Shown here piece by piece: positions 13,529 to 49,757 of a DNA stretch of 64,000 nucleotides (position 1 is its first letter; each line of letters starts with the position of its first letter). Origin of the DNA: Bartonella birtlesii IBS 325 (GTDB taxonomy: Bacteria; Pseudomonadota; Alphaproteobacteria; Rhizobiales; Rhizobiaceae). The stretch lies in assembly GCF_000273375.1 (NCBI RefSeq), contig NZ_CM001557.1:15445-79444 (forward strand). The letters are read 5' to 3'. Made by a program: the position numbers and the translations under genes. The notes beneath the pieces were generated by a model. It saw only the letters and a program-made list of their open reading frames with translations, was not told the origin of the DNA and ran no database searches.

Positions 13529-13886
13529 TTTTCCTCAAGCTTGCTGCAACAAAAAACTTTAAAAACTTATTACAAAAGATAAAAGCATGGAGGCTCTTAC
13601 AAAAAACTTAAAGAACACAATAGATAAAAGCGAAAGAATTCAGAAAATTAAAACATGAAGTAATCTTCACATAAGCCTAGTATAAAATATTCAAATTTCC
13701 TCCACTCTCAAATATACAAAAACGCTAATGTGCAAAATAAGCTAAATCTATCAGCTTAATGAAACTTGTACATAAAGATTAACTTTCTGAAAATTGAGAA
13801 GATACCTAAATATTCCTTGACCAACGCACCTTCTCCTGAGTATAGCCCGAAGGGAGAAATGTGGAGAGGAACAGGAGTATAAAAAA
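13529..13886. other. Intergenic region upstream of asd
   Basis: No gene seen. The right-hand end carries the asd promoter described separately. Confidence 0.4.
13817..13846 (+). promoter_or_regulatory. Putative asd promoter
   Basis: TTGACC at 13817-13822 and TATAGC at 13841-13846 are separated by 18 bases, a good sigma-70-type pair about 40 bases before the asd start. A TTCTCC/GGGAGAA inverted repeat (13831-13858) overlaps the -10 and could be an operator or a leader hairpin. Confidence 0.45.
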
Positions 13887-14918: not shown

Positions 14919-14927
14919 ATAAAAAGA

Positions 14928-14971
14928 GCAGCATGAGATATTCTTCCGTTTCATGCTGCCATAATTTTTTT
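14928..14971 (+). terminator. Rho-independent terminator after asd
   Basis: A nine-base stem GCAGCATGA / TCATGCTGC with a 14-base loop, followed by ATAATTTTTTT, ten bases after the asd stop. Confidence 0.85.
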
Positions 14972-15004
14972 CTGTTATCCTAACAACAATAAATTTTTTC
15001 ACCC

Positions 15005-15631: not shown

Positions 15632-15691
15632 TATTTTTTTCCTCTCCAGAGTATGAAAGACAAAATATTTGTCATTGCAAAAATTTGCCAC

Positions 15692-16141
15692 GTTTCAGTC
15701 AAATAGTAATAAATTCTTGTCTCGCCTTCAAAAACCCATCACATTTAGAGAACAGCTCTCTTACTTTGTCCCCTGCCACCCTATACACCGGGCTATTGTT
15801 TTGATTGCACAATATTTGACGCGTAGATTTACTGCTAAAATATCATCTGATTGCTTGGCTATTCAGCCAATCATCACTTAAAGAAGTTTTGAAAGTGCTA
15901 TTGGTTCCCCAAACAAATAACTGCGATACAAAAATTATTATCTAGATTGAAAAAAGGTACCGCGAGCGCACAATGTTGTTTTTTAAAGAATGCTTACAGT
16001 ATAGGAAAAAATAACATTCTTTTTTGAATAAAAATGATTGAATATTCTATAAAGCTTTTATAAGCTTAAAATCCCTATAATACAGAATTACATTTTCTTC
16101 CCTCAACAAGTCTCTTGGAAAAGAAAAAAGGATAAACATCC
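15692..16141. other. Divergent intergenic region before metQ
   Basis: Contains promoters for the SH3 gene (left, minus) and metQ (right, plus). A TATAAT lies at 16076-16081 with no strong -35 partner. AAGGA precedes metQ. I see no SAM-riboswitch consensus. Confidence 0.4.
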
Positions 16142-16960
16142 ATGACATTAAAGAAATTATCTCGGAATGCCACCATCGGATTCCTCCTTCCTCTCTTTGC
16201 ACTTTTCTTGTCTGTTCCCTTTTCCATGGCAACAGACAAATCAAAAATCAAACTCGGTGTTATGGAAGGGCATGAAGCAACTATTTGGAAAGTTGCTGGC
16301 GAACAAGCTAAAAAAGCGGGTTTAGAGATTGAACTTGTTTATTTTTCTGATTACACTTTGCCTAACGATGCGGTTAATGCAGGAGAGATTGATGCGAATG
16401 CTTTTCAACACTCCCCTTATCTTAAAAATCAAATTGAACAGCGTGGCTACAAACTTTCAACTGTGGGGTACACATTTATTGCTCCCATTGGTATTTATTC
16501 ACACAAAATCAAAGATTTAAAAGAACTGCGTGATGGCGCACATGTTGGTATTCCTAACGACCCATCAAATGGTGGAAGAGCCTTACTTCTTCTCAATTCT
16601 TTAAATCTCATTAAGTTAAAAGATCCTCACGATATTCTGGCTTCTCCGCTTGATATTATTGAAAACCCTAAAAACTTGCAAATTCGTGAATTAGATGCCG
16701 GTATGTTAGGACGAGCGGTTGATGATTTTGATATTGCAATTGTAAACACAAATTGGGCTTTGGTTTCTGGATTAGACCTACAAAAAGACGCGATAGCATG
16801 GGAAAAAGCAGAAAATAATCCTTATAATAATATCATTGTTGTGCGCACCAGCGATAAAGATGAGCCATGGGTCAAAAAATTAGTTGCTGCTTACAATAAC
16901 GAGACTGTCCGTGCGAAAATCAAAGAAATTTTCGGGCCAGCCGCGCAAACATCTTGGTAA
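16142..16960 (+). CDS. metQ: Methionine ABC transporter, MetQ/NlpA-family binding protein
   Basis: Periplasmic binding component of the methionine importer. Seen: a signal peptide (FLLPLFALFLSVPFSMA), then IKLGVMEGHEATIWKVA, DYTLPNDAVNAGEIDANAFQHSPYL, GIPNDPSNGGRALLLL and DIAIVNTNWAL, the diagnostic NlpA-family segments. Unlike the enterobacterial lipoprotein there is no lipobox cysteine, so it should be a soluble periplasmic protein. Length 272 is typical. It is first in a metQ-metN-metI operon, with the ATPase 23 bases downstream. Confidence 0.93.
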   Translation: MTLKKLSRNATIGFLLPLFALFLSVPFSMATDKSKIKLGVMEGHEATIWKVAGEQAKKAGLEIELVYFSDYTLPNDAVNAGEIDANAFQHSPYLKNQIEQRGYKLSTVGYTFIAPIGIYSHKIKDLKELRDGAHVGIPNDPSNGGRALLLLNSLNLIKLKDPHDILASPLDIIENPKNLQIRELDAGMLGRAVDDFDIAIVNTNWALVSGLDLQKDAIAWEKAENNPYNNIIVVRTSDKDEPWVKKLVAAYNNETVRAKIKEIFGPAAQTSW

Positions 16961-16983
16961 TTACGCCAAATTGGTAGTTATGA

Positions 16984-18018
16984 ATGGAAAAACCCGCTCT
17001 GATCTCCTTAAAAAACGTCAGCCGTTATTTTAACAAGACGGCTGGCATTCCGGCTGTTGACAATTTATCTCTCAATATCCACGCAGGTGAAATTCTTGGT
17101 ATTATTGGTCGTAGTGGAGCAGGAAAATCAACACTTATTCGCTGCTTAAATGGACTAGAGAGAATTGACGCAGGGTCTATTTTTTTTGAAGGCGTAGATG
17201 TTTCAAATCTGTCAGAAACACAATGGGCGCCTTACCGCCAACGTATTGGAATGATTTTTCAACATTTCAATCTTTTATCATCACAAAATATTCTTAATAA
17301 CATCGCATTACCACTTAAATTAAGTGGTATAAACAAAAAACAGCGCTACAAACGTGCCCTTGAACTCATCGAATTGGTCGGCTTATGTGGTAAAGAGCAC
17401 TGTTATCCGGCAGAATTGTCAGGAGGGCAAAAACAACGCGTTGGCATTGCACGCTCTTTAGCTGCTAATCCTAAAATATTGTTATCAGATGAAGCAACCT
17501 CTGCTCTGGACCCTGAAACAACACAATCTATTCTGGAACTTCTTGCTGATATTAACAATCGTCTAAATCTCACTATTGTACTCATTACCCACGAAATGGA
17601 AGTTGTACGCACTATTGCGCATCGCGTTGTTGTCCTCAATCAAGGACGCATTATGGAACAAGGACGTGTGAAAGACATTTTCACCTCTCCGCAAGAGGAA
17701 ACAACCATTGCCATGCTCAAACTTGTTACTCCACAACTTCCTGAAAAATTTGCAAAAAATCTTAAACCAATAGGCCAAGAAGCTGTTATTGAAATCAATA
17801 TTGCAGGTGAAATTGCCCAACAACCTTTTCTCAATCTTTTGGAAGATGAAATCGGTTTAAGAGCACGTATTCTGCATGGTGGTATTGATACAGTCCAAGG
17901 AGAAACCATCGGGCGACTATTCTTAGGTCTCCCAACAAAAGATAAAGAAGCTTTAGAAAAAGCTGTTCAGTGGTTGACAGAAAAAGGACAATATTGCGAG
18001 GTTTTAGGTTATGTTTAA
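16984..18018 (+). CDS. metN: Methionine ABC transporter ATP-binding protein
   Basis: ATPase of the D/L-methionine importer. Seen: Walker A GRSGAGKST, Q-loop IFQHFN, signature LSGGQKQRVGIARSL, Walker B ILLSDEATSALD and H-loop LITHEMEV. After residue ~260 comes a C-terminal NIL (ACT-like) domain, which in MetN binds methionine and inhibits transport. Length 344 is normal. The 3' end overlaps metI by eight bases. Confidence 0.95.
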   Translation: MEKPALISLKNVSRYFNKTAGIPAVDNLSLNIHAGEILGIIGRSGAGKSTLIRCLNGLERIDAGSIFFEGVDVSNLSETQWAPYRQRIGMIFQHFNLLSSQNILNNIALPLKLSGINKKQRYKRALELIELVGLCGKEHCYPAELSGGQKQRVGIARSLAANPKILLSDEATSALDPETTQSILELLADINNRLNLTIVLITHEMEVVRTIAHRVVVLNQGRIMEQGRVKDIFTSPQEETTIAMLKLVTPQLPEKFAKNLKPIGQEAVIEINIAGEIAQQPFLNLLEDEIGLRARILHGGIDTVQGETIGRLFLGLPTKDKEALEKAVQWLTEKGQYCEVLGYV

Positions 18019-18670
18019 TGTTCTCTCTCGTGAACTCCCCAACGCTGTTTTTGATACAATCTTGATGACGATAAGCGCTTCTTTGATGGCGCTTATTATA
18101 GGACTTCCCCTTGGCCTTCTCCTTTACATAACCGCACGTGGAAGGATTTTTGCCTCCTGTCTTATCAATCGCCCTTTGAGTATCCTCATTGATAGTATTC
18201 GCGCCATTCCCTTTATTATTCTTGCATTTTATCTTCTTCCTGTCACCCGTATGGTTGTAGGAAGAGGTGTGGGAATGCCTTCTGTGATCTTTGTGCTCAC
18301 AATCTCAGCTATTCCTTTTTATGCACGAATGGCAGAACTCTCTTTTAAAACCGTTGAAAACGGTCTAATTGAAGCTGTTCGTTCTATGGGAGCAAGCCGT
18401 CTTCAAATTATTAGGCATGTTCTTATTCCTGAAGCGCTCCCTAGCCTGATCACAGGTTTTACAGTCATGATTATTTCTCTTATAGGAGCCACTTCGCTTG
18501 CCGGATATCTCGGCGGAGGCGGTTTAGGCGACATGGCAATTCGCTATGGCTATCAACGCTATAATACCTCAATCATGACAAGTGTCATCATCCTTTTGAT
18601 TATTCTTAATGTTATTACCCAGTGGTCTTCTGATAAAATTGTGCAGAGATTGGATAAGAAAAGACATTAA
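18011..18670 (+). CDS. metI: Methionine ABC transporter permease
   Basis: Inner-membrane permease with five or six membrane segments and the EAA loop for contacting MetN (GLIEAVRSMGASRLQIIRHV, 20 residues). The conserved GGGGLGDMAIRYGYQRYN segment comes near the end. Length 219 matches MetI. Its start overlaps the end of metN, so the two are translationally coupled. A decayed second copy of its last ~50 codons follows at 18716-18866. Confidence 0.94.
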   Translation: MFNVLSRELPNAVFDTILMTISASLMALIIGLPLGLLLYITARGRIFASCLINRPLSILIDSIRAIPFIILAFYLLPVTRMVVGRGVGMPSVIFVLTISAIPFYARMAELSFKTVENGLIEAVRSMGASRLQIIRHVLIPEALPSLITGFTVMIISLIGATSLAGYLGGGGLGDMAIRYGYQRYNTSIMTSVIILLIILNVITQWSSDKIVQRLDKKRH

Positions 18671-18715
18671 AATTTAACAATTTCAATTTTTCAAAACCAT
18701 CATAATGAACAATGA

Positions 18716-18866
18716 AAATGATTTAGGTGGTATGAAAGGTCACTATGGTTATCAGCATTATAATAGCTCTATTATGATAAGCACCATCATCCTTTTGATC
18801 ATTGTCCGTGTCATTACTCAATAATTATCTGATAAAATTGTGCACAAACGCGAGAGAACAAAGCAC
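18716..18866 (+). pseudogene. Duplicated 3' remnant of metI
   Basis: Reads DLGGMKGHYGYQHYNSSIM, then STIILLIIVRVITQ, a TAA at 18822-18824, then LSDKIVHKRERTKH. This parallels the metI C-terminus (GLGDMAIRYGYQRYNTSIM, SVIILLIILNVITQ, SSDKIVQRLDKKRH) residue for residue with about two thirds identity and one in-frame stop. A partial tandem duplication of metI that has decayed. Confidence 0.85.
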
Positions 18867-25342: not shown

Positions 25343-27043
25343 TCAAAAACGATGGCGCAAACCAGCAGAAAAACCTGCTTCAGTAAGCCGATGCTGATAG
25401 ATTACATCTCTATGAAGTGTGAATTCGGAGATAATTGTGCATTAAAACCAAGCCCTGCTTCAAGAAATAAACAAAAAGCACCCAACTAGAAATCTTTTTC
25501 AAAAGAGACAATCTGTTTATCTTCACAACTACGTGAAAGATAAAACTTATTATAAAAGGAAACAACACGACCTTCTTTAGAAGTAGAAAGAACCTTGGTA
25601 AAACGTCCACCAACACGCGCTATCCATTGTTCAACATTTCCCAAAATCAACATCAAGCTCATCAATATCACGCACACGATCAGACTGAAGATTCTGATAA
25701 ATTAACTGCACCTGTGGATCAAAGAAAATACCCTTATGTCTCACAGCAAATGTTTTACCGCCCTTTATGGCAATATTGACCTGCTTACTTTTTAACGTCG
25801 CTGTTTTATCCCGAATAAGTAAGAGAGCATCCCATCCATAAGAGAAGAAGTGCTCGCTTTAACCAATAGAGAAGCCTGACTTTCAGCTTTTAACAATAAA
25901 TCACCAAAGATCTTCGTCTTTTCTGAGAATTCAAGAGTGCCTCTAATCCCATAATTCTTAGCCCCCTTCACATAAATAGCAATACCGTCTGGAACTGTCA
26001 TATTTGTCTGTGATAAATAAACGAATGCTTTCCCCGTTACAACTGTTTTAGATTCTAAAAGCTTTTCATCCTCCCATTGCCTCAATATTTTCGCAAGTTC
26101 TTCTAGAGCTAAAACATTAAAATACAGACCATATGCTCCCTCCCTCTGTATAAAAATATCATTTTTTTCTATCTTAATACTTGTATTCTGAAAGCCATTT
26201 TGTAAATTATATTTTTGTAATGATTTGCCATTTTCATCTGCATAACCTGAAAAATTTTTAATCAAGAAACCATGCATATGCTTAAGCTGAATCAATTATT
26301 TTTCAAATAAACATCACCATCTTGAGAAATCTCAAAAGCTTCTGGTAATATTCCCATAGCTTCACCACTATTTATTATAGCTTCTTCTCTCTGCCCTTGT
26401 CCCGTAATAACCATAATATCGAGAAGATAGTGCCCGCCAAACCGTGTTGAAAATGAGCCAGTCTGATTAAAAGTAACGGTACCGCTTGACATTCTAAACA
26501 TTGCACCCAAACCACGAACAAGTCCAATCCCTGTCATATTTAAATTATCCGTCTCAATTTCGATATTCACACTCGATAAAGTAATATCCGTTTCTCTCCC
26601 CCATGCGTAAACAGCATGTGATATTCCCTTAATTGCCCCTACCGTCATACCAATAACTGCATTCTGAGCACGAATCCCAGCTATATCCTTAAAATTTGAA
26701 GCTATGAGATTAAGCCTTCCACCATTTTTTACATAAGCACTATATGCAGATATTTTATCTGGATTATCACCATAAACTGTTATCTGTGATGCATTAACAA
26801 TAGTGTCTACATTTTCTATATACAGAGCTGCAACAAGCGCCATACGAAGAGACGTATGCTGAAAATTTTTAAGTAATAAACTCTATCTGCAAATGTGCGT
26901 ACCCTACTATCATTAGCACTATAAAACGCCTTTCCTAAATCACCTGAAGTTCCTGCGGCATGAACATAACTAATTGGTAAAAAATAAAAAATAGCTGTTG
27001 TAAAAGTGCATAAAAATATATGATTACGAAATACATTGACCAT
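25343..27043 (-). pseudogene. Decayed autotransporter with frameshifts and internal deletion
   Basis: Starts with an autotransporter signal peptide (MVNVFRNHIFLCTFTTAIFY) and ends with the barrel's last strand (HRLTEAGFSAGLRHRF). Fragments in three frames: signal and start (26816-27043), N-terminal passenger (26292-26843), more passenger (25792-26295), then broken barrel pieces (25343-25690). At about 25840 the passenger segment LLVKASTSSL runs straight into a barrel-like MDGMLSY, so several hundred codons of passenger, pre-barrel module and early barrel are deleted. Closest in-window relative is the next gene (27194-31224), whose passenger it resembles line by line. Not functional. Confidence 0.85.
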
Positions 27044-27193: not shown

Positions 27194-27964
27194 CTAAAAA
27201 CGATGACGTAAACCACTAGAAAAACTTACTTCAGAAAACCCAGCTTTAGTAAGCCGACGCTGATAGGTTATATTTCCATGAAATGCAAGCCTTGGAGATA
27301 ATAGAGCATTAAAACCAAGCCCTACCTCTAAAGGAGTGCCAAAAGCACCTAATTGAAAATCTTTTTTAAAAGACACAATCTCTCTCTCTCTAAAATTATA
27401 GGAAATATAGAGCTTACTATAGAAAGAAATAACACGCCCTTCCTCAGAAGAAGAAAAAAACTTACTTAAACACCCACCAAAACGCGCTGTCCATTGATCA
27501 AATTTTCCCAAATCAACATCAATATTATCAACATCATGCACACGATTAAATTGAAGACGCTGATAGAGAAGCTGAATCTGTGGATTAAAAATGATACTCT
27601 TATGCCCTGCGATAAATGTTTTACCACTAGTCAAAGAAGTATTAAGCTGTCTTCCCTTTAACGTTGCTGTCTTATCCCGAATAAGGGTAAACACATCTCC
27701 CTTAAACAAACCATAAGAAAATACGCCATTTACGTAAAAATCTGTATCATGCTGCATATTTCCATAAGCAGCAACAGACCATTTATCAAATGGACTCTTT
27801 TTGCTATATTCAACATCTTGAGGATACAGGGAGAGGCTTCCATAAGTGCCCATAACCCCAAATAATGTGTGACTGTATAAACTTTCAATTTCTTTTAAAA
27901 AAATACCTGCTTCTAGTGCCGTATAATCGAGATCAGCCCCATACCCATATTCAAGAGCAGACAA
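27194..27964 (-). CDS. Autotransporter beta-barrel, frameshifted from its passenger
   Basis: The 256-residue frame covers the barrel of the gene whose passenger is at 27913-31224, beginning at SALEYGYGADLDY and ending SSGLRHRF with the C-terminal Phe needed for outer-membrane insertion. The strands match the intact autotransporters here (SYGLFKGDVFTL, KTATLKG, FGGCLSKFF, FQLGAFGTPLE). It has no signal peptide of its own and would not be exported alone. It is the second part of one gene broken by a frameshift at an A5G5 tract (plus-strand 28004-28013). Confidence 0.8.
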   Translation of the reverse strand: MSALEYGYGADLDYTALEAGIFLKEIESLYSHTLFGVMGTYGSLSLYPQDVEYSKKSPFDKWSVAAYGNMQHDTDFYVNGVFSYGLFKGDVFTLIRDKTATLKGRQLNTSLTSGKTFIAGHKSIIFNPQIQLLYQRLQFNRVHDVDNIDVDLGKFDQWTARFGGCLSKFFSSSEEGRVISFYSKLYISYNFREREIVSFKKDFQLGAFGTPLEVGLGFNALLSPRLAFHGNITYQRRLTKAGFSEVSFSSGLRHRF

Positions 27965-30900
27965 ATTTGAAGCATAATGATAATTTCCGCCATAACCACG
28001 AACAAAAAGGGGGAAATTTCATCATTTTTCAAAAGACTACCAGCAACCCTTCGCATAATTTTTAATTTTTTATTTTGAATGGTCAAATCCATCAAGCCAG
28101 CTTGGAACAGGGCATTGGGCAACAAAAGATATGTTGGCAATTGCGGAACAATAGCTCTAACTTGAGACTTAGGCTGAATATCAGGCTGAACAGAAACCTC
28201 TGGCAAAGAATCTACGGGTTTAAATGGCTCAGAAGACTTTGGCTCAATAGATGTAAGAGAGAAAGAAGCCGTGGGGTCAGATGGCTCAGATGATGGTACA
28301 GGCAAAGAAGATGCAGGAAGAGAATCCTTAGACAAAGTATTTACAAGAACAGATGGCTCAGATGGTAGTACCTCTGTAGGTGTTTTAGTTGGTACAAACG
28401 GCACAGATTGCGCAGAAGAAGGATTCTTTGGATCAGGTGGAATGGACGCAGATAGAGTGGAATCCGTAGGAAGAGAATCTACCAAAGCAGATGGTACAAC
28501 AGAAGAAGGCTTTTTTTCAATAGATGTAAGAGAAAGAGAAGCCGTAGGATCAGGTGAATCAGATGATGGTACAGGCAAAGAAGGTGCAGGAAGAGAATCC
28601 TTAGACAAAGTATTTACAAGAACAGATGGCTCAGATGGTAGTACCTCTGTAGGCATTTTAGTTGGTACAAACGGCACAGATTGCGCAGAAGAAGGATTCT
28701 TTGGATCAGGTGGAATAGATTCGGATAGAGTGGAATCCGTAGGAGGAGAATCCACCGAAGCAGATGGAATAACAGAAGAAGACTTTGGTTCAATAGATAT
28801 AGGTGAAAGAGAAGCTATAAGATCTGACGGTTCAAGTACTTCAGACAAAGACGGTGTAGATGATGGTACAGGCAGCGGTTCAATAGAAGAAGATGCAGAA
28901 ACAGAATCCTTAGACGGAGGAATGACCGAATCGATTGGTTCAAATGGTGGAACTTCAGCAGAAGTTTCAGTTGGAACAAGTGGTGCAGGCACAGGTTGTA
29001 CAGAAGAAGAATCCCTTGGATCAGCTGGAACAGGTACAACTGGAGCAGAATCCATAGATGGAGAAACTATAGGAGTAGATGCCTCAGCCCCGGAAGTCCC
29101 TGTTTCTACAGCTGTAGAAACGGTAGAAATAGAATTCGTAGGAGCAGATGTTTCAAATGATTCAGATACTTCAAGTAAAGACGGTGTTGATGCTACAGGC
29201 ACTGAATCAACAGAAGGAGATTGTTCAGCTAAAGACGATGGAGGCGAAATGGGCTCTACTGGTGGCTCAGAAGGAACAATTCCTGATTCAGGGAGGGATG
29301 GTAAAAATGGAGAATCTAAAGACGAAACAGAAGTAGATTTAGATTCAGAAGAATTTGATTTAGGATCAATATAAACACCTTCGAGACGAAAATCCCAAAA
29401 ATCTCCACTTCCTGCAACCAATCGATTCTCTAATTGTGATTGTCCCCAAGAAGAAGTTGGACCATAAGCGCGAAGATGATATTGATAAGGAAAACCATTA
29501 ATTGTAATATAATTATTAATTAATTTAAAAGAATTTTCCTCCGCCGTCCCAGCAACTTGAACAAGTGAAATACTTTGACTTTCTTTATTGCCTACTTCTT
29601 CTCCTGAAGTTTTGGAAAAGTTTTCCATCACGAGCAATGTAGTTCCCCAGACATTCCCGTAGATCAGAATGCGATCAGTTTTCTCAGGATCAAATAAACC
29701 ATTCTTATTGAGAAACGTGCCGAGCTTAATCTGAGTATTACCATCTGCACCATATACATACTCCTCGTCATCTAACATTACTTGGTTTATATCACTTTCT
29801 TTTCCAATATGCAGCGTTTGATAACCACTAGATTGATAATGATCAAAAGCAATTGTACTATCTTCAAGAGAAATACCTGAAAGCGATGAAACCGTAGCAT
29901 CTGCCTCCTGTGAGCCTTTATATTTACTTTTGGTAAGAAGCCATTTAGAACCACGCTTTAAATTCAAATAAATATCAGAAGTATCTTCAACACGAGAATC
30001 TCCTGTAAGTGTAGAGGAATTTGCTTCAACGAGAAGATAAGAATCATTCTCAGCTTTTAATAACAAATCACCGGAGATTTTTGTGTTTTCTAAGTTAACT
30101 ATAGCTTGAGCTCCATAAACATCATCTCCGGCACTATAAATAGCTATACCATCTGGAACCGTGAAATTTGTCTCTGATAAATAAACAAACGCTTCTCCCA
30201 TAACAACTTGTTGCGCTTCGGAAAACGTTGAAGGTGTTATATAATCCTCTAACAAATCAACCCATGCATTTGGATCTAACCCATAAAAATACAGACCACG
30301 TGCTCCCTTCCCCTTAATAGAAATATCTGTATTTTCAATTTTAATATTTGTCTTTTTAAACTCATACGATGAATTAAATTTATTAATTAATTTGCCATTA
30401 TCATCTGCATAACCTGTAAAATTTTTAATCAAAAAACCATGCATGCCAATAAGTTCTACCGGACTATTCCTTAATTGAACGTTACTACCTTGAAATACCT
30501 CAAAAGCGCCTAGTAATTTATCAATATTTTTTTCGTCTTCTATAACAGTTTCTCGTTTCCCTATTCCCTTAATAACAGTATTATCAAAAGTATATTGCCC
30601 TCCAAATTGTGCTGAAAACGCACCAATCTCATTAAAAGTAACGGTACTGCCTGACATCCTAATCTTTGAACCAAAACTGCTAACAAGACCTATCTCTTGT
30701 GTACTATTTAATTGACTTGGTTTAGTCTCAATATTTATACGCACCAAAGCAACATCGGTTTCTATCCCAAATGCATCCATAACAAGAGAAGTCCCCGTAA
30801 TCGACCCATCTGTCATGCGAACAACTGAATTTTGAGCATGAAGTGCAAGAACATCCTTAAAATTTGCATTTTTTAAATCAAGATGTGCACCACCTTTTAG

Positions 30901-31224
30901 ATATGCACCATACACATTTCCTTGACCTGAATTATCGCCCGTAACAGTTATCTCAGATGCATTAACAACTGTACCTTGTCCTTCTATATACAAAGCTGCA
31001 ATAGGAGCGGAATCAGAAGAAACTCTCCAAGAATTTTTTAAATGATAAGTTTTATTTCTTATTGTGTGTTTTTTACCATCACCGCATATATACACACTCT
31101 CGCTGTCATCACAGTTTTTCTTAAAACTATTGGGAGCTGCATAAACACTCATGACGAGCAAAAAAGAAACAGGTGCAGCTGTAAAAGAGAATAAAAACCT
31201 ATATTTTCTCAGTATATTAACCAT
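27913..31224 (-). CDS. Autotransporter passenger with Ser/Pro-rich repeats (frameshifted)
   Basis: Signal peptide MVNILRKYRFLFSFTAAPVS..SVYA, a Cys-pair start (CDDSESVYICGDGKKH), a beta-helical passenger, the pre-barrel module (SLVQVAGTAEENSFKL, YHLRAYGP, then WDFRLEG near residue 615), a Ser/Pro/Glu-rich linker of about 390 residues with 91-residue repeats, then VPTYLLLPNALF and the first barrel strands. At TCCCCCTTTTTG (minus strand) the frame slips and the protein ends in an unrelated tail. One added T would restore RGYGGNYHYASNL and join the barrel at 27194. Surface adhesin or toxin-like autotransporter of the Bartonella family; function unknown. Confidence 0.82.
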   Translation of the reverse strand: MVNILRKYRFLFSFTAAPVSFLLVMSVYAAPNSFKKNCDDSESVYICGDGKKHTIRNKTYHLKNSWRVSSDSAPIAALYIEGQGTVVNASEITVTGDNSGQGNVYGAYLKGGAHLDLKNANFKDVLALHAQNSVVRMTDGSITGTSLVMDAFGIETDVALVRINIETKPSQLNSTQEIGLVSSFGSKIRMSGSTVTFNEIGAFSAQFGGQYTFDNTVIKGIGKRETVIEDEKNIDKLLGAFEVFQGSNVQLRNSPVELIGMHGFLIKNFTGYADDNGKLINKFNSSYEFKKTNIKIENTDISIKGKGARGLYFYGLDPNAWVDLLEDYITPSTFSEAQQVVMGEAFVYLSETNFTVPDGIAIYSAGDDVYGAQAIVNLENTKISGDLLLKAENDSYLLVEANSSTLTGDSRVEDTSDIYLNLKRGSKWLLTKSKYKGSQEADATVSSLSGISLEDSTIAFDHYQSSGYQTLHIGKESDINQVMLDDEEYVYGADGNTQIKLGTFLNKNGLFDPEKTDRILIYGNVWGTTLLVMENFSKTSGEEVGNKESQSISLVQVAGTAEENSFKLINNYITINGFPYQYHLRAYGPTSSWGQSQLENRLVAGSGDFWDFRLEGVYIDPKSNSSESKSTSVSSLDSPFLPSLPESGIVPSEPPVEPISPPSSLAEQSPSVDSVPVASTPSLLEVSESFETSAPTNSISTVSTAVETGTSGAEASTPIVSPSMDSAPVVPVPADPRDSSSVQPVPAPLVPTETSAEVPPFEPIDSVIPPSKDSVSASSSIEPLPVPSSTPSLSEVLEPSDLIASLSPISIEPKSSSVIPSASVDSPPTDSTLSESIPPDPKNPSSAQSVPFVPTKMPTEVLPSEPSVLVNTLSKDSLPAPSLPVPSSDSPDPTASLSLTSIEKKPSSVVPSALVDSLPTDSTLSASIPPDPKNPSSAQSVPFVPTKTPTEVLPSEPSVLVNTLSKDSLPASSLPVPSSEPSDPTASFSLTSIEPKSSEPFKPVDSLPEVSVQPDIQPKSQVRAIVPQLPTYLLLPNALFQAGLMDLTIQNKKLKIMRRVAGSLLKNDEISPFLFVVMAEIIIMLQICLLLNMGMGLISIIRH
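28245..28830 (-). repeat. 273-bp tandem repeats in a Ser/Pro linker
   Basis: The block starting GAAGCCGT (plus-strand 28265) recurs at 28538 and, degenerate, at 28811, a spacing of exactly 273 bases or 91 codons. The repeated protein unit includes DPKNPSSAQSVPFVPTK and EVLPSEPSVLVNTLSKDSLP. Two nearly identical copies and a third diverged one. Confidence 0.85.
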
Positions 31225-34207: not shown

Positions 34208-34953
34208 AATTAAAAATGATAACAGAATCCACTAGGAAAATGTGTTCCAAAAAAACCAGCTTTGGTAAATTTAGATAGGTCAGATCGCTATGAAATGTAA
34301 TCTTTGTAAACAATTGTGCATAAACACCCAACCTTGCTTCCAGAAAAGAACCCAAAGCACCCAATAGAAAAGTATCCCCCCAATACACGAATTATTTATC
34401 ACTAAAATCACCAACAAAATGAAATTTACCATAGAAAGAAACCACATGTGCTTCTTCAAATGCTGTAAGAACCTTGGTTAAATACCGGTCAACACGCGCC
34501 ATCCAATAATCTGGTCTTCTCATTTCAATATCAACACCCTTAACATCATATGTCTTACAATAACTGAAGATGTTGATAAACAAATTGTATCTGTGGATTA
34601 AAAACAAAATTTTCGCACCCCACTATAAACGCTTTACCTGTTATCTAAGTACTTTTGCCTACATAACCATTTACATACGAAATACCATTAATAATGATAG
34701 CATCTGCTCCAATGACTGTATTTTCCCCTCAGGCCTCTATCACTGCATCAGGATTTTCACTCCTAACTATATAAGTTTTTTCAGAGATTTTATGTTCTTT
34801 TCCATCATTACAGTGATAAAATGAAGCATTTTTACTACATGAAAATTGTCTCTTGCCAGCAGATTAATCATGAGCATCAGCATTATGTACAAAAATAAGA
34901 ATAATTATTGTAAAATGACATAAAGAGGGGTGATTTTTAAATATTTTGATCAT
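34208..34953 (-). pseudogene. Short autotransporter remnant
   Basis: Begins MIKIFKNHPSLCHFTIIILIF (signal peptide) and continues with YHCNDGKEHKISEKTY, which resembles the start of the neighbouring 35321-37975 gene. After stops and frameshifts it jumps to late barrel sequence (GKAF, VFNPQIQFVYQ, VDIEMRRPDYWMARVDRYLTK, LLGALGSFLEARLGVYAQL). About 2 kb of the ancestral gene is missing. Non-functional. Confidence 0.85.
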
Positions 34954-42719: not shown

Positions 42720-45700
42720 TTAAAACTGATAACGGACTCCTCCAGAAAAACTTGTTCCAGAAAAACCAGCCTTATTGAGTTTATGCTGATAGACAAGATC
42801 CCCATGAAGAGAAAACTGTGCAGACAATTTGGCATTAAAGCCTAAACCAGCCTCTAAAGAAGAACCAAAAGCACCTAACTGGAAAGCATCTTTGAAATAC
42901 ACAGCTTTTTTGCCTCCAAAACCATGGGCAAGATAAAGCTTACTATAAAATGTAACAACATTCACTGCTTCAGAGTTCTTAGGAGTCTTACTCAAACGTC
43001 CACCAACACGTGCTACCCACTGATCAAGTTTTCCCATTTCAATATCAAAACCATCAATATCATGGGCTTTATCAAACTGCAGATGTTGATAAATAACCTG
43101 AACTTGCGGATCAAATACAAAACCTTCATATCCTGTTGCAATTGTCTGGCCACCAGTCAAAGAAACACTTAAAGGATTGCCTTTTAATGTGGCTGTCTTA
43201 CCTCGTGCAAGGGTAAGAACATCACCTTTAAACAAACCATAAGACACAAGACCATCTATATAGAATCCAGCATCATGCTGCATACTACCATATGCCGTAG
43301 CAGTCCATTTATCAAACGCACTTTCTTGACTTTGTTCAACATTCAAAGGCTGTAACGAAAGTTTTCCATAAGATCCCATAACTCCAAAGGACACAGTATT
43401 ATCAACATTTTCAATTGTTTGTAATAAAAGCCCTGCCTCTACACCATTATAATCAAGGTCACCTTTGTAACCATATTCAAGTGCAGACAAATCTGAAGTG
43501 TAACGGTAATTTCCACCATAGCCACGCAAATATAACGCAGGACTTTGGCGACCTTCTAACATTCCATTAAACCTAACTCGCAGTGTTTCCAACTGCTTGT
43601 TTTGATTGCTGATATCCATCAAACCAGCATGGAATATGCTATTAGGCAAGAGTAGATAAGTTGGAACTTGTGGAACAACAGATCTGACAAATCTTTCAGA
43701 AAGAACAAATCCAACCATAGGAGTGGTAGGTTTAACATACTGATTTTCTAAACGAAAGTTCCAGAATTCTCCTCCATCCTTAACAAATTTTTGCTGAACA
43801 TGCTCCTGTTTCGAAGTTTCTTTTGGGCTATAAGAACGAAGAGCATATTTGTAAGGTGAATTCAACAGTGCAACATAACCACCATTCAGCAAGAAAGAAT
43901 CTTTTTCTGCCTTTCCATAAACCTGAATAACTGGAACACTATGAGGAATCCTTTTATCACTCCTACCTTTTTCTCCTACATCACCGGAAACTCCTTGTAC
44001 ATGTATTTTTGTTTTTCCAGAAACATCACCATGAATTACAACCCTATCAGTTACTTGCTCTTCACTCCGATCACTAGGGTTTAAACGCGCATTGAGACGT
44101 ATTGAAACGTTACCGTGAACCTCATAAACCTTGCCGCTCCCATTTCCAATACGGAGAGTCTGATACAGATTTCCAGATTCTGGAGCAACAAACTCAATAG
44201 CACTATCTACAAGACGTACAGAGGAAGCACAAGAATCTACACACTCTGAATCTGTAGTACCCCAATTCTTATGTTCACCTCTTTTTATAAACCACTCTGA
44301 TCCATTAGTCAGATCTAAATTGACATAAGAATTTTTTTCAATACTTGAACCTCCTACAATAACCGAGTCATTAACCGAAAGCGATATATTAGAATTATTC
44401 TCAGCTCTCAACAATAAGTCACCAGAAAGTTTTGTTTTATTTTCTAAGGAAACACCTCCACTAGAATGATTTCCATAAATAGCAACACTCTTTATAACTT
44501 CGAAATCAGTTTTTTTCAATGAAACCATACCCGTTGTTATATCTATAGGTGTTCTTTCTTGTAAAGATTTAGCACTTCGCTTAACAACATCGGCTTTCTC
44601 AGCAGAATGTCCTCTTTCAGTCGACTTGGCAACAACCTTCACTGGAACCTTATTTTTATTCTGTTGACCAACCTCTTGTTGCTCTCTCCCATCAAAATAT
44701 ATACCATAGGATTTATCACCTTCCACCCTAACAGTTGAAGATTCAATTTTAGCATAATTCATAGAAGGTTTAGCATAATTCATAGCAGGAAGAATATCAG
44801 AAGATCTCTTTTTCCTAGAAGAACCGGTTTCAACAACATTACTCGTTCCTTTAACCCACAAAGCATTGGCATCAGTGACAACATTACCATTTGCAAACTC
44901 AACAGAAGCATTATCACTCACCAAAATAGCAGCACGTCCAAACCTATCTATAGAATTCGACTCTCCTGTACCTTTTTTAGCCGTAATGACAACCTTATCT
45001 AATTTAATATGCGCCCCTGTTTCTGCCCGAACTGCTATCCCATTTTTCAGAGAAATTGTCCCAGAATCCATAGTTATCTCACCGCCTTTACTCGCTAAGC
45101 CAGCGGCAACCCCTCCCCCTACCATATTAATTTTCGTATTACTTAAATTAACAGATGCTCCAGTGCCAGCCAAAGCTCCCACATAACGAGCATTGACCAT
45201 TCCTTCAATCATTTTCACCTCCCCACCTTTTTGCGCTTCCAACCCAATCACAGAAGATGTAATGTTTGATTTCTTATCTAGAATAACTTTCGCACCTTCT
45301 TCTGCAAGCACAGCACTCGCAAACTGAGATCCAGTAAAATCAACATCATTTTCATTACCAGAAGAACCTGCTCCGCTAATTGTAGCACCTTCTAGGTTAA
45401 TGACCGTATCCTGACTTTTTGCATACATAGAATGCTGAGCTTGATTACTCGCTGTCAGTGTAACTCCTTTAACCGTATATGATTTACCATTATCGCATGA
45501 ATAAGAAACTAGCGATTTCTTATCACCATTTCCATTCGAAATACTACAATTAGAACCATCTTTTTTACCTGTACTAAGCCCCTCAGAAGTCAAAGGCTTT
45601 GTAGGCTTTGTAGAGGCAGTAGACTTCAATGAAACTATAGCTACAGGTTCATTCGGTACTGTAAAAGTAACATTCTGAGGTAATTGAGAATTTCCAGAAC

Positions 45701-46238
45701 CAGGCAAAAGACGTCCTACTGCTGAAGATTCTTTCTGTTTAGACACCGTGGATTCTACATTTTTAGAACCTTCATTAGATTTAGAACCTTCATTAGATTT
45801 AGAACCTTCATTAGATGAAGTAGGTGTAACAGTTACGATAGACGGACCAGATGGAATTCCAGTAGATGGAATTGTTACAATATCAATTTCATTAGAATCA
45901 CTATCAGATATTATTGTATTACCCTCTTCATCTACTACATCATATCCTTGCCTATCCAATACTGCTCCAGTACCTGTTACGGTAAGAGATTCTGTAGTTT
46001 CAGAATTTTCACTATCCTCTTCAGGGGATTCAAAAGAAGGAACTAATGTTACAGAAGGCTCACTTTCTTCGGTTTCTTCGGTTTCTTCAGTTTCTTCAGA
46101 CACTGGAATGGTAAGCGCACGAGCTTTAGACACATATAAAAAATGTCCGTTATCCTCATAGGGTATATTTTGGCTTTCTAAACGAAAATCCCAAACATCT
46201 CCACTATTCCTCACCAATGTCTTATCAAAATAATTCAT
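42720..46238 (-). CDS. Second passenger and barrel of a dual-passenger autotransporter
   Basis: 1172 residues from the first Met of this frame, but with no signal peptide: it opens MNYFDKTLVRNSGDVWDFRLESQN, which is the end of a first passenger. Next come an acidic linker (EETEETEETEE, then SNEGSK three times), a new passenger start (CSISNGNGDKKSL..YSCDNGKSYTVKG), beta-helix repeats, a basic KKRSSD stretch, SVPVIQVYGKAEKDSF, YKYALRSYSP, WNFRLENQYV and a barrel ending FSGGVRYQF. The frame is open upstream without stops as far as the A7 tract at 46389-46395, where it joins the 46316-48619 frame. Best read as the 3' part of a single gene. Confidence 0.85.
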   Translation of the reverse strand: MNYFDKTLVRNSGDVWDFRLESQNIPYEDNGHFLYVSKARALTIPVSEETEETEETEESEPSVTLVPSFESPEEDSENSETTESLTVTGTGAVLDRQGYDVVDEEGNTIISDSDSNEIDIVTIPSTGIPSGPSIVTVTPTSSNEGSKSNEGSKSNEGSKNVESTVSKQKESSAVGRLLPGSGNSQLPQNVTFTVPNEPVAIVSLKSTASTKPTKPLTSEGLSTGKKDGSNCSISNGNGDKKSLVSYSCDNGKSYTVKGVTLTASNQAQHSMYAKSQDTVINLEGATISGAGSSGNENDVDFTGSQFASAVLAEEGAKVILDKKSNITSSVIGLEAQKGGEVKMIEGMVNARYVGALAGTGASVNLSNTKINMVGGGVAAGLASKGGEITMDSGTISLKNGIAVRAETGAHIKLDKVVITAKKGTGESNSIDRFGRAAILVSDNASVEFANGNVVTDANALWVKGTSNVVETGSSRKKRSSDILPAMNYAKPSMNYAKIESSTVRVEGDKSYGIYFDGREQQEVGQQNKNKVPVKVVAKSTERGHSAEKADVVKRSAKSLQERTPIDITTGMVSLKKTDFEVIKSVAIYGNHSSGGVSLENKTKLSGDLLLRAENNSNISLSVNDSVIVGGSSIEKNSYVNLDLTNGSEWFIKRGEHKNWGTTDSECVDSCASSVRLVDSAIEFVAPESGNLYQTLRIGNGSGKVYEVHGNVSIRLNARLNPSDRSEEQVTDRVVIHGDVSGKTKIHVQGVSGDVGEKGRSDKRIPHSVPVIQVYGKAEKDSFLLNGGYVALLNSPYKYALRSYSPKETSKQEHVQQKFVKDGGEFWNFRLENQYVKPTTPMVGFVLSERFVRSVVPQVPTYLLLPNSIFHAGLMDISNQNKQLETLRVRFNGMLEGRQSPALYLRGYGGNYRYTSDLSALEYGYKGDLDYNGVEAGLLLQTIENVDNTVSFGVMGSYGKLSLQPLNVEQSQESAFDKWTATAYGSMQHDAGFYIDGLVSYGLFKGDVLTLARGKTATLKGNPLSVSLTGGQTIATGYEGFVFDPQVQVIYQHLQFDKAHDIDGFDIEMGKLDQWVARVGGRLSKTPKNSEAVNVVTFYSKLYLAHGFGGKKAVYFKDAFQLGAFGSSLEAGLGFNAKLSAQFSLHGDLVYQHKLNKAGFSGTSFSGGVRYQF
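45763..45816 (-). repeat. Three 18-bp tandem repeats (SNEGSK)
   Basis: TTAGAACCTTCATTAGAT occurs three times in a row (plus strand), coding for SNEGSK in the linker of the dual-passenger autotransporter. Copy number could change in frame. Confidence 0.85.
46064..46099 (-). repeat. Four 9-bp tandem repeats (EET)
   Basis: TTTCTTCGG-type units (plus strand), coding for the EETEETEET stretch in the same linker. Confidence 0.75.
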
Positions 46239-46315
46239 TTTTGCAGGGATAGACGGACCATAACCACGAAGAACATACTTATAAGGCGTCCCTTCTCGTG
46301 TAATATAACCACCTT

Positions 46316-48619
46316 CTAAAGTAAAACTGTCGCTTTTTGCCTCTCCAAAAACTTGAATAAGTGATGTGCTATAAAGTGTATCCTGTTCTTTTTTTCATTA
46401 CTATTTGAAGTGTCATGTACAGACACTTTTGTTTTCCCATCAACATCACCATGAATTAATAACCTATCGGATATTTGAGAATTCTCCGCTTCGCTAGGCA
46501 TCAAATTCGCATTGAAATGAACTTTAGCATCACCCTTAGTGCTAAAAACTACACCATCCCCTTTCCCTATACGAAGTATTTGATAACCTTGGTTTACTTG
46601 CTTTACTTGCTTTACTTGCTTTGCTTGATCTCCACCGTTTACTTGCTTTGCTTGGTCTGCTTGATCTCCACCTTGAGAGGCTGCATTGTTTCCAGATCCC
46701 AAAGACATAAACCGAATATTACTATTTCTAAGTGTTATAGACGAAATACATGAATCTAAACATTTAGAGCCATCAAGCCTCTGATTTTTATCTTTTATTA
46801 AATGCCATTCCGATCCCTGTAAAAAAATCTTTGCATTAGAACTTTCATCAACACGAGCAGGACCACCAATTAAAGAGTTATAAGCAAAAATCGACATATT
46901 AGAAGAAGATTCAGCTTCCAATAGTACTCTTCCAGAAAGAACAGATTCGTCTTTTAAGATAACAGAACCATTTAAATCAAGACCCAAAACTGCCACACCA
47001 TCTGGAACTTTAAAAGAGGATTTCTTTAAAAGAACCGCACGCAAATTGGCTTTTTTTCCTACATTTCCTCTACTTTCTTCTTCCTCTTCTTGCTTCTTAC
47101 TAAAGTGGATACCATAAGTATCTCCCGTCAAACGAATCCTTGAAGATCTAATACTAGCACTAACCCCTAAAGAATCTTTACTAAAGAAACTATCCCCCTC
47201 TGTAATAGCTTTTATAGTGGAGACAACATCATCAAAAGCTTCATTTTTAGCTTGATAAGCTCCATAAGCTCCATAAGTTTCATGAGCTTCAATAACTTTA
47301 TCAAGGGAATGCGCTCCATTCTCCTCATGAAAAAGAGAAACATTATCAACAAAGGGAATACCACCTGAAACGTGGAAATCAGTATTTGAATTAGGGATAG
47401 GAGGTATTTCATTACTAGGTTCTGGTATCGGAACACCAGCTAACGAGTTAATATTATTCTTGGAAACACTAGAAACTTCATCACGAATCCAGAAAAGAGG
47501 AACATTAGAAATATCTAATTTCCCATTATCAAAGGAAATAAAACCTTTTGTATCTGACAAGAAGACAAAACTCCCTGTATTACTTGTCCCATTACCACCA
47601 GGTTTAGATTTAATTTTAACTTTGTCTAAATTAATAGCAGATCCATCTCTCGACACAACTCCTATTCCACCCATTTTGGGAAAAATAATTGACCCAGACT
47701 TCATCATAATACCGGAATGGTTATCAGCAAATAAACCAATTTTAGTGGTATCATCCTCACTAGTATTATTATAGTAACTTACATCAACTTCAACATGACC
47801 CAAAAAAATAGACGAAAAACTATCAGCAAAAGCACCAATATCAACATTTCTGATTTTTCCCCCCTTCATGGTAATCCATCCACCTTGTTCAGCATGAAGT
47901 CCGACAGCAAAAGTCTTAATATTTGATTCGTCTAATCTAACCCTTGAACCTGCTTTTGTCACAAATACAGCACTCCCCTTTCCTGCTGCTTCACCGGACC
48001 CCTTGTTTTCATCACCACTTCCCAAAAGACGTTGGATAGGAGACTCAAAACCGCTATCATTAGAAGGACGGACTCCCCACAAATACATTTTCTGTAGTTT
48101 AATATCCGTCCTCCTATAGTCTTCCCCTGCTTTTCCTTTTGTAGATATGGGATTTTCACTATATTTTGTTACTTCAATTTTACTGTTTTTTGCAGTGTAC
48201 ACTCCACCACTGCAGACAATAGGTTTATGCTCAAGATTATAATTACTATGATGATTATCTTGAGCAGTACCTATCTTACACTTACTGACGGACTCCGCCC
48301 TAGGAGCACCACCGGAAGGAATGCTATTAATACCATTATCTCGAATACCATTATCTCGAATACCATTATCTTGAATACTATTATCTTGAATACTATTATC
48401 TTGGATACCATTACCCCGAATACCACTACCCCGAATATCATTACCCCGAATACCACTACCCTGAATATCATTACCCTGAATATCATTACCCTGAATATCA
48501 TTACCCTGAATATCATTACGTACCTGTGCCCCCACAGAAACATTAACAGCTTGTAAAAAGAAGAGAGCACTTGTCGTCAGTGCGCACAAACGTGTACGCT
48601 TTTTAAATACATTGGTCAT
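46316..48619 (-). CDS. First passenger of a dual-passenger autotransporter (frameshifted)
   Basis: Signal peptide MTNVFKKRTRLCALTTSALF..NVSVGA, then a run of 5-residue repeats (NDIQG / NGIRD type, about 12 copies), a Cys pair, and a beta-helical passenger with familiar blocks (GRVLLEAESSSNMSIFAY, SSITLRNSNIRFMS, YQILRIGKGDGVVFSTKGDA, DRLLIHGDVDGKTKVSV). The frame ends abnormally just after EKKN. In the DNA beyond, the other frame encodes the expected TSLIQVFGEAKSDSFTLEGG and YKYVLRGYGP, then the 42720-46238 protein. One extra A in the A7 tract (plus-strand T7 at 46389-46395) would fuse both into about 1966 residues. Confidence 0.85.
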   Translation of the reverse strand: MTNVFKKRTRLCALTTSALFFLQAVNVSVGAQVRNDIQGNDIQGNDIQGNDIQGSGIRGNDIRGSGIRGNGIQDNSIQDNSIQDNGIRDNGIRDNGINSIPSGGAPRAESVSKCKIGTAQDNHHSNYNLEHKPIVCSGGVYTAKNSKIEVTKYSENPISTKGKAGEDYRRTDIKLQKMYLWGVRPSNDSGFESPIQRLLGSGDENKGSGEAAGKGSAVFVTKAGSRVRLDESNIKTFAVGLHAEQGGWITMKGGKIRNVDIGAFADSFSSIFLGHVEVDVSYYNNTSEDDTTKIGLFADNHSGIMMKSGSIIFPKMGGIGVVSRDGSAINLDKVKIKSKPGGNGTSNTGSFVFLSDTKGFISFDNGKLDISNVPLFWIRDEVSSVSKNNINSLAGVPIPEPSNEIPPIPNSNTDFHVSGGIPFVDNVSLFHEENGAHSLDKVIEAHETYGAYGAYQAKNEAFDDVVSTIKAITEGDSFFSKDSLGVSASIRSSRIRLTGDTYGIHFSKKQEEEEESRGNVGKKANLRAVLLKKSSFKVPDGVAVLGLDLNGSVILKDESVLSGRVLLEAESSSNMSIFAYNSLIGGPARVDESSNAKIFLQGSEWHLIKDKNQRLDGSKCLDSCISSITLRNSNIRFMSLGSGNNAASQGGDQADQAKQVNGGDQAKQVKQVKQVNQGYQILRIGKGDGVVFSTKGDAKVHFNANLMPSEAENSQISDRLLIHGDVDGKTKVSVHDTSNSNEKKNRIHFIAHHLFKFLERQKATVLL
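46592..46672 (-). repeat. 9-bp repeats coding for KQV/DQA units
   Basis: Repeated ACTTGCTTT / GCTTGATCT units (plus strand), giving QADQAKQVNGGDQAKQVKQV in the first passenger, a Gln/Lys-rich hydrophilic insert. Confidence 0.7.
48331..48519 (-). repeat. 15-bp tandem repeats (about 12 copies) after a signal peptide
   Basis: Units such as TACCATTATCTCGAA and TATCATTACCCTGAA (plus strand) repeat with period 15, coding for N-x-I-x-(G/D) pentapeptides. Related sub-variants are grouped (CTGAA, CCGAA, TTGAA, TCGAA), which suggests stepwise local duplication. All changes of whole units keep the frame. Confidence 0.9.
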
Positions 48620-48706
48620 ATGTCAAACTTTCTAAATAATGTTGCAAAAACACTAGAATTAAGTGAAAATGAGATAAGTACACGTTCTGTAACATACATT
48701 AGTCTA

Positions 48707-48735
48707 TTTTACAACATAGTGTAATTTATTATAAT
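48707..48735 (+). promoter_or_regulatory. Putative promoter of the iron ABC operon
   Basis: TTTTAC (48707-48712) and TATAAT (48730-48735) 17 bases apart, about 80 bases before the binding-protein gene. Just downstream, TTTGTACACAAA (48741-48752) has five-base inverted arms and could be an operator. It does not match a Fur or RirA box that I can recognise. The divergent autotransporter promoter overlaps the same 196-bp gap. Confidence 0.4.
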
Positions 48736-48815
48736 ATCGCTTTGTACACAAAAATGTCTAAATATAAGTTTTTAAGTACGTAAACCCTTAATATTTTATA
48801 AAATAAAAGGATAAA

Positions 48816-49757
48816 ATGATGATGATAAAATATCTAAAATGGGTAACTTCTGTTCTGCTAATCGCAATAAGTTTTACAACTTATTCATGGGCAGGTATAG
48901 ATGTTAAAGAAAATATAACTATTGATCATGTTTCAGGCACAACTTCTGTTCCCACTGCTCCACAAAAAGTTATTGTGTTTGATATTGCCTCACTTGATAA
49001 TATGAATCGACTTGGGATCAAAGCCGTTATCGGTATTCCTGAAGGGAAAAAGCCTTCATATTTGCAGCAGTTTAATGATGCACAATATGAAAAAATTGGT
49101 ACCCTTTTTGAACCTGATTATGAAAAAATTGCCACTCTTCAGCCTGATCTAATTATTATTTCCTCAAGAACTCAAGCTAAATATAAAGATTTATCCAAAA
49201 TTGCTCCAACTATTGATCTAACTGTAGGAAATGAAAATTCTCTTGCGGATATCGAACGAAATGTGTCTATCCTTGGGAAAATTTTTGGCAAAGAAAAAGA
49301 AGCTGAAGCAGAGATTACAGTACTTAAGGAAAATTTAGCAAAAGTCCGTGAAAACACCCAAGGGAAAGGCACAGGGCTTGTACTGATGACTTCTGGTGGC
49401 AAAATCAGTGCTTTGGGTTCAAAATCGCGGTTTGATATTCTCCATTCCGCCTTTGGTATTGCTCCCGCAACCGATAAACTCACAGTACAAAAACATGGGC
49501 AGCTCATTTCTCCTGAATTCATTCTCGAAACCAATCCTGATTGGTTATTGGTTATTGATCGGGATGCAGCAATCGGACGGGAAGGACAATCTGCTGCACA
49601 ACTACTTAACAATGAGCTTGTTCACCGCACAACGGCCGGCCAAAAAAAGCAGATTATTTATTTAGATTCTTGGAGTTGGTATCGTGCAGCTGGTGGTTTA
49701 ACAGGGCTTAACGAAGCAGCACAACAAATCAATGAAGCCTTTACAAAAAGCAAATAA
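48816..49757 (+). CDS. Iron-siderophore ABC transporter binding protein
   Basis: Periplasmic binding protein of the FatB/CeuE/YclQ type. Seen: signal peptide (MMMIKYLKWVTSVLLIAISFT, cleavage near SWAG), then PQKVIVFDIASLDNMNRLG, the domain core YEKIATLQPDLIIISSRTQ, LILM-like LVLMTSGGKISALG and a C-terminal IIYLDSWSWYRAAGGL. No lipobox cysteine. 313 residues. Probably binds a ferric siderophore or haem-derived iron complex; which one is unknown. AAAAGGAT precedes three consecutive ATG codons. A strong terminator separates it from the permease genes, so it may be made in excess over them. Confidence 0.9.
   Translation: MMMIKYLKWVTSVLLIAISFTTYSWAGIDVKENITIDHVSGTTSVPTAPQKVIVFDIASLDNMNRLGIKAVIGIPEGKKPSYLQQFNDAQYEKIGTLFEPDYEKIATLQPDLIIISSRTQAKYKDLSKIAPTIDLTVGNENSLADIERNVSILGKIFGKEKEAEAEITVLKENLAKVRENTQGKGTGLVLMTSGGKISALGSKSRFDILHSAFGIAPATDKLTVQKHGQLISPEFILETNPDWLLVIDRDAAIGREGQSAAQLLNNELVHRTTAGQKKQIIYLDSWSWYRAAGGLTGLNEAAQQINEAFTKSK

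What the first reader, a model, noticed from the sequence alone, without database searches (positions are those of the whole stretch)
42720..48619. Dual-passenger autotransporter fused into one ~1966-codon frame, switched by an A7 tract
The first passenger (46316-48619) ends with the usual module, whose second half continues in the next frame (TSLIQVFGEAKSDSF, WDFRLESQN). That runs without a stop into a linker, a second complete passenger and a barrel. One signal peptide and one barrel would thus display two tandem passengers. Only one A in a seven-A tract (plus-strand T7, 46389-46395) breaks it. This looks like a fusion of two genes in which the first lost its barrel, possibly under slippage control. 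I know of no described Bartonella protein of this design.
Basis: partly seen in the sequence, partly recalled or inferred. Interest (0 to 1): 0.75.

Follow-up and report, generated by a model that had tools for sequence, protein, structure and literature searches.

The report
Broken copy of ancient two-headed autotransporter
A Bartonella surface protein that carries two tandem passenger domains on a single membrane anchor is split by a frameshift in this genome, but many related species carry it whole, so it looks like an old shared design with a damaged or misread copy here rather than a new fusion.

Summary
The reading frames are as described. ORF1 (46316-48619, minus) has a signal-peptide-like start and a pertactin-like passenger. 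The second half (open frame 42723-46394) has the rest of the first stem module, a linker, a second passenger and a barrel. The frames meet within about 46394-46370, beside the T7 (A7 in sense).

The interpretation changes. By a profile of passenger 1, 42 of 71 Bartonella genomes carry the locus (my cut-off). In 38 it is one open frame of 1653-2405 aa. Of the other four, two run into assembly gaps, one lacks passenger 2, and one is the window. First and second modules form separate groups across species. The dual-passenger protein is old and shared; the break is particular to this genome. The locus is probably CFA (inferred).

A slippage switch is not supported: A-runs are not enriched (4 seen, 3.3 expected), the tract is not conserved (A>=7 in this loop in 2 of 21 orthologues), and it is only 7 bases. 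An in-register A AAA AAG heptamer leaves -1 slippage open, without a detected stimulator. Recent inactivation and assembly error are the leading explanations. No mend or read-through was made.

The parts
46316..48619 (-). ORF1: signal-peptide-like start, passenger 1 (predicted pertactin-like beta-helix) and the first part of stem module 1; no barrel
48527..48619 (-). signal-peptide-like N-terminus of ORF1 (hydrophobic core from about residue 12)
   Evidence: the end is my estimate, no cleavage-site predictor was run
46391..47041 (-). module 1, left part (HMM positions 10-196, two stretches)
46370..46394 (-). interval in which the reading frame changes (hypervariable loop of module 1)
46389..46395 (-). 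A7 in sense (T7 on plus); read as ..A AAA AAG in ORF1's register
46251..46379 (-). module 1, right part, in the frame of the second half (HMM positions 204-245 fall at 46251-46376), followed by the WDFRLE motif
42723..46394 (-). open frame of the second half (first ATG at 46238; ORF2 42720-46238 including stop)
45525..46169 (-). Ser/Glu/Thr-rich linker between the two passengers (bounds approximate)
43803..44561 (-). module 2 (end of passenger 2; overlaps the Pfam AC_1 match)
42798..43532 (-). autotransporter beta-barrel, PF03797
48816..52508 (+). divergent four-ORF transporter operon (one ORF confirmed as FecCD permease) that marks the same position in relatives

Best explanation
This is the window genome's copy of an old, widely shared Bartonella classical (type Va) autotransporter with two tandem passengers, each ending in the same kind of stem/autochaperone-type module, then a single barrel. 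It is probably the locus published as CFA. In intact relatives one signal peptide takes the chain to the periplasm, the C-terminal barrel inserts in the outer membrane, and both passengers should be threaded out and fold from the C-terminal side, giving a long two-part rod (inferred from general knowledge of type V secretion, not tested). In this assembly a frame change in a variable loop of module 1 separates passenger 1 (exported but without an anchor) from passenger 2 plus barrel (no signal peptide, so not exported). The copy is therefore probably off. The break is most likely a single recent inactivating change, since 768 and 1224 codons on either side are still open. Shown: architecture, orthology, and the frame break in the assembly. 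Inferred: the CFA name, loss of function, recency.
For: P1 profile on 71 Bartonella genomes: 56 match at E 1e-60; 42 match at about 1e-105 or better, which I count as the locus (cut-off chosen after seeing the list). 38 of the 42 are single frames of 1653-2405 aa; in 37 of the 38 a second module match is listed in the same frame, and G048's second is. In fetched loci 23 distinct intact frames carry two modules followed by 354-369 residues, the size of a barrel; 49 of 54 database homologues carry both modules. In 22 of 22 fetched loci with such a frame (L001-L017, L019-L021, L023, L024) a divergent ORF of about 310-338 aa lies directly upstream. P2 modules group with window ORF2 (support 0.985); P1 modules group with window ORF1 (0.98 for 22 of 23, 0.45 for all 23). 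Predicted ORF1 fold is pertactin-like. Reviews describe CFA as a hypervariable Bartonella autotransporter needed for bacteraemia (passages).
Against: No close strain was found (best homologue over the whole of ORF2 59% identical, others up to 76% over parts; 80% in one segment of L025), so the break cannot be shown to be real or fixed. Loss of a factor reported as needed for bacteraemia would be odd in a field isolate, which favours error, laboratory passage or slippage. A slip heptamer in register could still give some full-length protein. In 3 of 23 intact frames a hydrophobic stretch (12-residue mean 2.0 or more) lies between the modules, so an internal export signal was not excluded by a proper predictor.
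Confidence: 0.55

Rival explanations
1. Sequencing or assembly error: the gene is intact in the organism and the frame break is an indel error in the assembly.
For: Among the 40 of 42 copies not run into assembly gaps, only the window's shows a frame break. The break lies at or beside an A7. A second autotransporter in the same window (27913-31224 / 27194-27964) also changes frame beside short C and T runs. CFA is reported as needed for bacteraemia (review passages).
Against: Eight of ten non-autotransporter ORFs checked in the window match near-complete curated domains; the MFS and WD40 proteins are not decisive. The assembly is one contig listed as 99.98% complete. These are weak arguments.
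Confidence: 0.28
2. Reversible phase variation: slipped-strand changes at the A tract toggle the dual-passenger protein on and off.
For: Mononucleotide contingency loci are published for Bartonella, e.g. the badE adhesin and virB9 A8-9, and one listed ON/OFF gene has A7-9 (PMC11466379: abstract, passages and sections 10-11).
Against: A>=7 runs in ORF1+ORF2: 4 seen, 3.3 expected. Runs of 8 or more are fewer than expected in 23 intact frames (A 5 vs 7.4, T 3 vs 11.6), although A>=6, T>=6 and T>=7 are modestly above expectation there (104 vs 89.8, 70 vs 58.1, 39 vs 27.6; A>=7 40 vs 32.4). The tract is not conserved (A>=7 in 2 of 21 loops). It lies about 97% through ORF1 and over a third of the way into the two halves together, not near the 5' end as in the published set. 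None of the relatives examined was off by a tract.
Confidence: 0.09
3. Recoding: the ribosome (or RNA polymerase) slips at the A AAA AAG heptamer, so that a fraction of product is full length without any DNA change.
For: The heptamer is in the right register and the second half lies in the -1 frame. A AAA AAG is the dnaX-type slip sequence (recalled, no call).
Against: No unusual downstream structure (z = 0.63; z = 0.48 for the wider stretch) and no Shine-Dalgarno-like stimulator seen upstream by eye. In-frame A AAA AAR words occur 16 times (0.12 per kb) in 23 intact frames that do not need them, and once more inside ORF1 itself at 47057.
Confidence: 0.06
4. Two separate genes: passenger 2 plus barrel is expressed and exported independently.
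For: An ATG at 46238 opens a 1172-codon ORF.
Against: No signal-peptide-like stretch in the first 620 residues of the second frame (best 12-residue hydropathy 1.4, against 2.1 in ORF1's N-terminus). No ATG, GTG or TTG in the 52 codons upstream of that ATG. Promoter-like sites in 45500-48850 are at chance level (11 vs 11.1, both strands). Relatives have single frames.
Confidence: 0.02

Closest known systems
Bartonella CFA (CAMP-like factor autotransporter)
   Same: Large classical autotransporter with a hypervariable passenger (review passages). B. taylorii, B. henselae and B. quintana homologues of ORF2 carry two modules.
   Different: This copy is frame-broken. I could not read the primary papers, so I do not know whether they describe the two tandem passengers or whether this exact locus is the one named.
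Pertactin / Vag8 / UpaB-type classical autotransporters (type Va)
   Different: Two passengers, each with its own stem module, on one barrel; pertactin has one passenger (recalled).
SSR contingency loci of Bartonella (badE, virB9, vblA)
   Same: Frameshift at or near a mononucleotide run in a surface-protein gene.
   Different: Run of 7, not conserved, not enriched, not 5'-proximal; on/off variation within the species could not be tested.
dnaX-type -1 programmed frameshifting
   Same: A AAA AAG in register and a -1 second frame.
   Different: No downstream structure or upstream stimulator detected; intact relatives read one frame.

Membership tests
Classical type Va autotransporter | C-terminal PF03797 barrel | tested here: met
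   ORF2 903-1147, E 1e-24
Classical type Va autotransporter | N-terminal signal peptide on the same chain as the barrel | tested here: not met
   In this allele the signal-peptide-like start is in ORF1 and the barrel in ORF2's frame. The 23 intact frames have a hydrophobic N-terminal segment (12-residue mean 1.5-2.5) on the same chain.
Classical type Va autotransporter | beta-helical passenger with autochaperone-type C-terminal stem | tested here: met
   Predicted pertactin-like fold for ORF1 (mean pLDDT 64.5, 222 residues at 90 or more). AC_1 in ORF2. ORF1 alone has no Pfam hit.
Dual-passenger autotransporter locus of Bartonella | two stem modules, one barrel, next to the divergent transporter operon | tested here: met
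   in the window module 1 is split by the frame break
CFA | orthology to the published cfa gene | tested here: inconclusive
CFA | cohemolysin activity / requirement for bacteraemia | not testable with these tools
   reported in a review (passages)
SSR contingency locus | long mononucleotide run, more than codon shuffling predicts | tested here: not met
   A7 only; 4 runs of A>=7 vs 3.3 expected
SSR contingency locus | run conserved in relatives | tested here: not met
   A>=7 in 2 of 21 orthologous loops; 3 of 24 frames were not matched by the pattern and were dropped
SSR contingency locus | length variation between strains or cells | not testable with these tools
   no second strain of this species and no reads available
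Programmed -1 frameshifting | slip heptamer in register with -1 second frame | tested here: met
Programmed -1 frameshifting | downstream stimulatory RNA structure | tested here: not met
   z = 0.63; pseudoknots were not modelled

The most novel reading that the evidence does not exclude
The tandem-passenger, tandem-stem design on one barrel is a distinct subclass of type Va autotransporter kept by one large group of Bartonella species, not described as such in the passages I saw (the primary CFA papers were unseen). In this species its production from a frame-broken allele is kept low by -1 recoding at a dnaX-type slip heptamer, a translational throttle on a dominant antibody target.
Probability: 0.05. 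Interest if true: 0.75.

Novelty: new member of a known kind. Interest (0 to 1): 0.38.

Why it matters
The dual-passenger frame, seen in 38 of the 42 genomes counted as having the locus, shows that one barrel can be kept in evolution with two pertactin-type passengers in series. That bears on how autotransporters stack modules and diversify surface antigens. A natural copy without passenger 2 (G019/L043) gives a comparison. If the break in this genome is real, an isolate without the presumed CFA would bear on how dispensable that factor is; if it is an error, the annotation should be corrected.

Tried and rejected
Recent fusion in this genome: rejected, because relatives have single frames in the same place and P1 and P2 modules form separate groups across species.

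G019 (L043; L037 in the tree) is one open 1171-aa frame with a P1-type module and no second module, not a frameshift.

Second signal peptide or internal promoter for ORF2: not found by hydropathy or consensus scan. Sequence search for solved relatives of either half: no hit at E 0.01. Foldseek's first row for ORF1 was an alginate lyase with TM 0.11; pertactin came second with E 4.7e-4. Literature: 'two passenger domains' with 'autotransporter' gave 0 papers and 'inducible autotransporter' with Bartonella 0; some searches gave listings, from which I read passages of some papers. None of this shows that the design is unpublished. The first loop pattern matched only 7 frames; the improved one 21 of 24, with L020, L023 and one L046 frame dropped.

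Tree caveat: the clade of all 23 P1 modules has support 0.45 and the grouping of P1 with P2 0.47, so internal duplication versus fusion of two old genes is not resolved.

Full report
What is in the sequence. On the minus strand ORF1 (46316-48619, 767 aa) starts with a signal-peptide-like segment, and ORF2 (42720-46238, 1172 aa) ends with an autotransporter barrel. The frame of ORF2 is open from 46394, 52 codons before its first start codon, and is closed upstream by a stop at 46397; ORF1 stops at 46318. ORF2's frame is the -1 frame of ORF1. The T7 at 46389-46395 is real.

A profile of the stem module (end of beta-helix plus autochaperone-type region), built from five of the window's own autotransporter ORFs, matches ORF1 at model positions 10-130 and 126-196 and the start of ORF2's frame at 204-245. 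It then matches a complete second module in ORF2. One module is thus cut by a frame change. The allowed interval is about 46394-46370: the stop at 46397 sets the upstream limit and the conserved anchor after the loop the downstream one. The interval lies in a loop of 19 to 43 residues among 21 orthologous frames, so homology cannot say whether the A tract or a neighbouring base is the altered site.

How general it is. A profile of passenger 1 was run against 71 Bartonella genomes: 56 had a match at E 1e-60. I count 42 with the locus itself, those with a match at about 1e-105 or better, a cut-off chosen on seeing the list; the other 14 are presumably single-passenger paralogues, not checked one by one. 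Of the 42, 38 have it in one frame of 1653-2405 aa, median about 2000. The four exceptions are the window (768), G024 and G036, whose short frames run into N, and G019, which has a 1171-aa frame with a P1-type module, a barrel-sized end and no second module. In a tree of 125 module sequences, P2 modules plus the window's ORF2 form one group (0.985), and P1 modules plus the window's ORF1 another (0.45 for all 23, 0.98 for 22). The architecture therefore predates the split of these species. Whether it arose by internal duplication or by fusion of two genes is not resolved.

Is it a switch? I applied the two tests used in PMC11466379 (sections 10 and 11 read): prevalence against codon shuffles, and conservation. 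ORF1+ORF2 have 4 A-runs of 7 or more, with 3.3 expected. In the 23 intact frames, runs of 8 or more are below expectation (A 5 vs 7.4, T 3 vs 11.6), while A>=6, A>=7, T>=6 and T>=7 are modestly above (104 vs 89.8, 40 vs 32.4, 70 vs 58.1, 39 vs 27.6). That mild excess of short runs is against my reading but is not specific to this site. An A-run of 7 or more sits in the same loop in 2 of 21 orthologues. That paper surveyed runs of 9 or more and found them concentrated at 5' ends, though some on/off genes had runs down to A7 or A8. This tract meets neither test.

Could slippage express it anyway? The tract reads ..A AAA AAG in ORF1's register, the dnaX slip word (recalled), and the second half is in the -1 frame. 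There is no unusual downstream structure (z 0.63 and 0.48). Such words occur in intact orthologues at about 0.12 per kb, and a second one lies inside ORF1 at 47057. I leave this open at low probability.

Why is it broken here? Either the change is real and recent (both halves still fully open), or it is an assembly error. For error: it is the only frame break among the 40 copies free of gaps, it is by a homopolymer, and another autotransporter in the same window (27913-31224, barrel in 27194-27964) also changes frame beside short runs. Against: one-contig assembly with high completeness, and eight of ten ordinary neighbours checked match near-complete domains. No close strain was found (best 59% over the whole of ORF2), so this cannot be settled here.

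Comparison with the known. Reviews describe CFA as an autotransporter present across lineage 4 (PMC10936683, passages) or in all Eubartonellae, lineages 1-4 (PMC10288214, passages); hypervariable, a target of neutralising antibodies, and needed by B. taylorii for bacteraemia. Variability fits, and B. taylorii homologues of 1661, 1707 and 1770 aa carry both modules. The primary papers were not held, so the name is an inference. Comparative papers describe the autotransporter clusters as expanding and contracting by tandem duplication and deletion (PMC2697382, PMC3610622, passages); a second passenger is not mentioned in the passages I saw. Frameshift loss of the unrelated trimeric adhesin BadA in isolates is published (PMC8859334, passages).

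Verdict. The dual-passenger idea is right but old and shared. The fusion and switch readings are not supported, and the break in this genome is most likely a recent inactivation or an error.

Noticed in passing
27194-31224 (-): A second autotransporter is frame-broken: passenger and AC_1 in 27913-31224, barrel in another frame (27194-27964), beside short C and T runs.
   Followed up: partly
25364-25879 and 34269-34568 (-): Barrel-like fragments with stops inside, within the autotransporter array, signs of decayed copies.
   Followed up: no
L043:1858-5370: Genome G019 has passenger 1 followed directly by a barrel-sized end in one 1171-aa frame, with no second module: natural single-passenger version.
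   Followed up: partly
L046:1787-9001 and 13493-18805: One genome with two dual-module frames (2405 and 1771 aa) in the same array, suggesting duplication of the gene or its parts.
   Followed up: no
L016:11105-14219: B. vinsonii berkhoffii neighbour autotransporter split into two overlapping frames inside the same stem module, a similar kind of break in another gene.
   Followed up: no
46407-46429: Short inverted repeat (8 pairs including a G-T, loop 7) just before the A tract in sense; listed as terminator-like on the plus strand, probably chance.
   Followed up: no
48329-48519: 15-bp tandem repeat, about 12.7 copies, near the start of ORF1; the unit is a multiple of three, so copy number could change without breaking the frame.
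   Followed up: no
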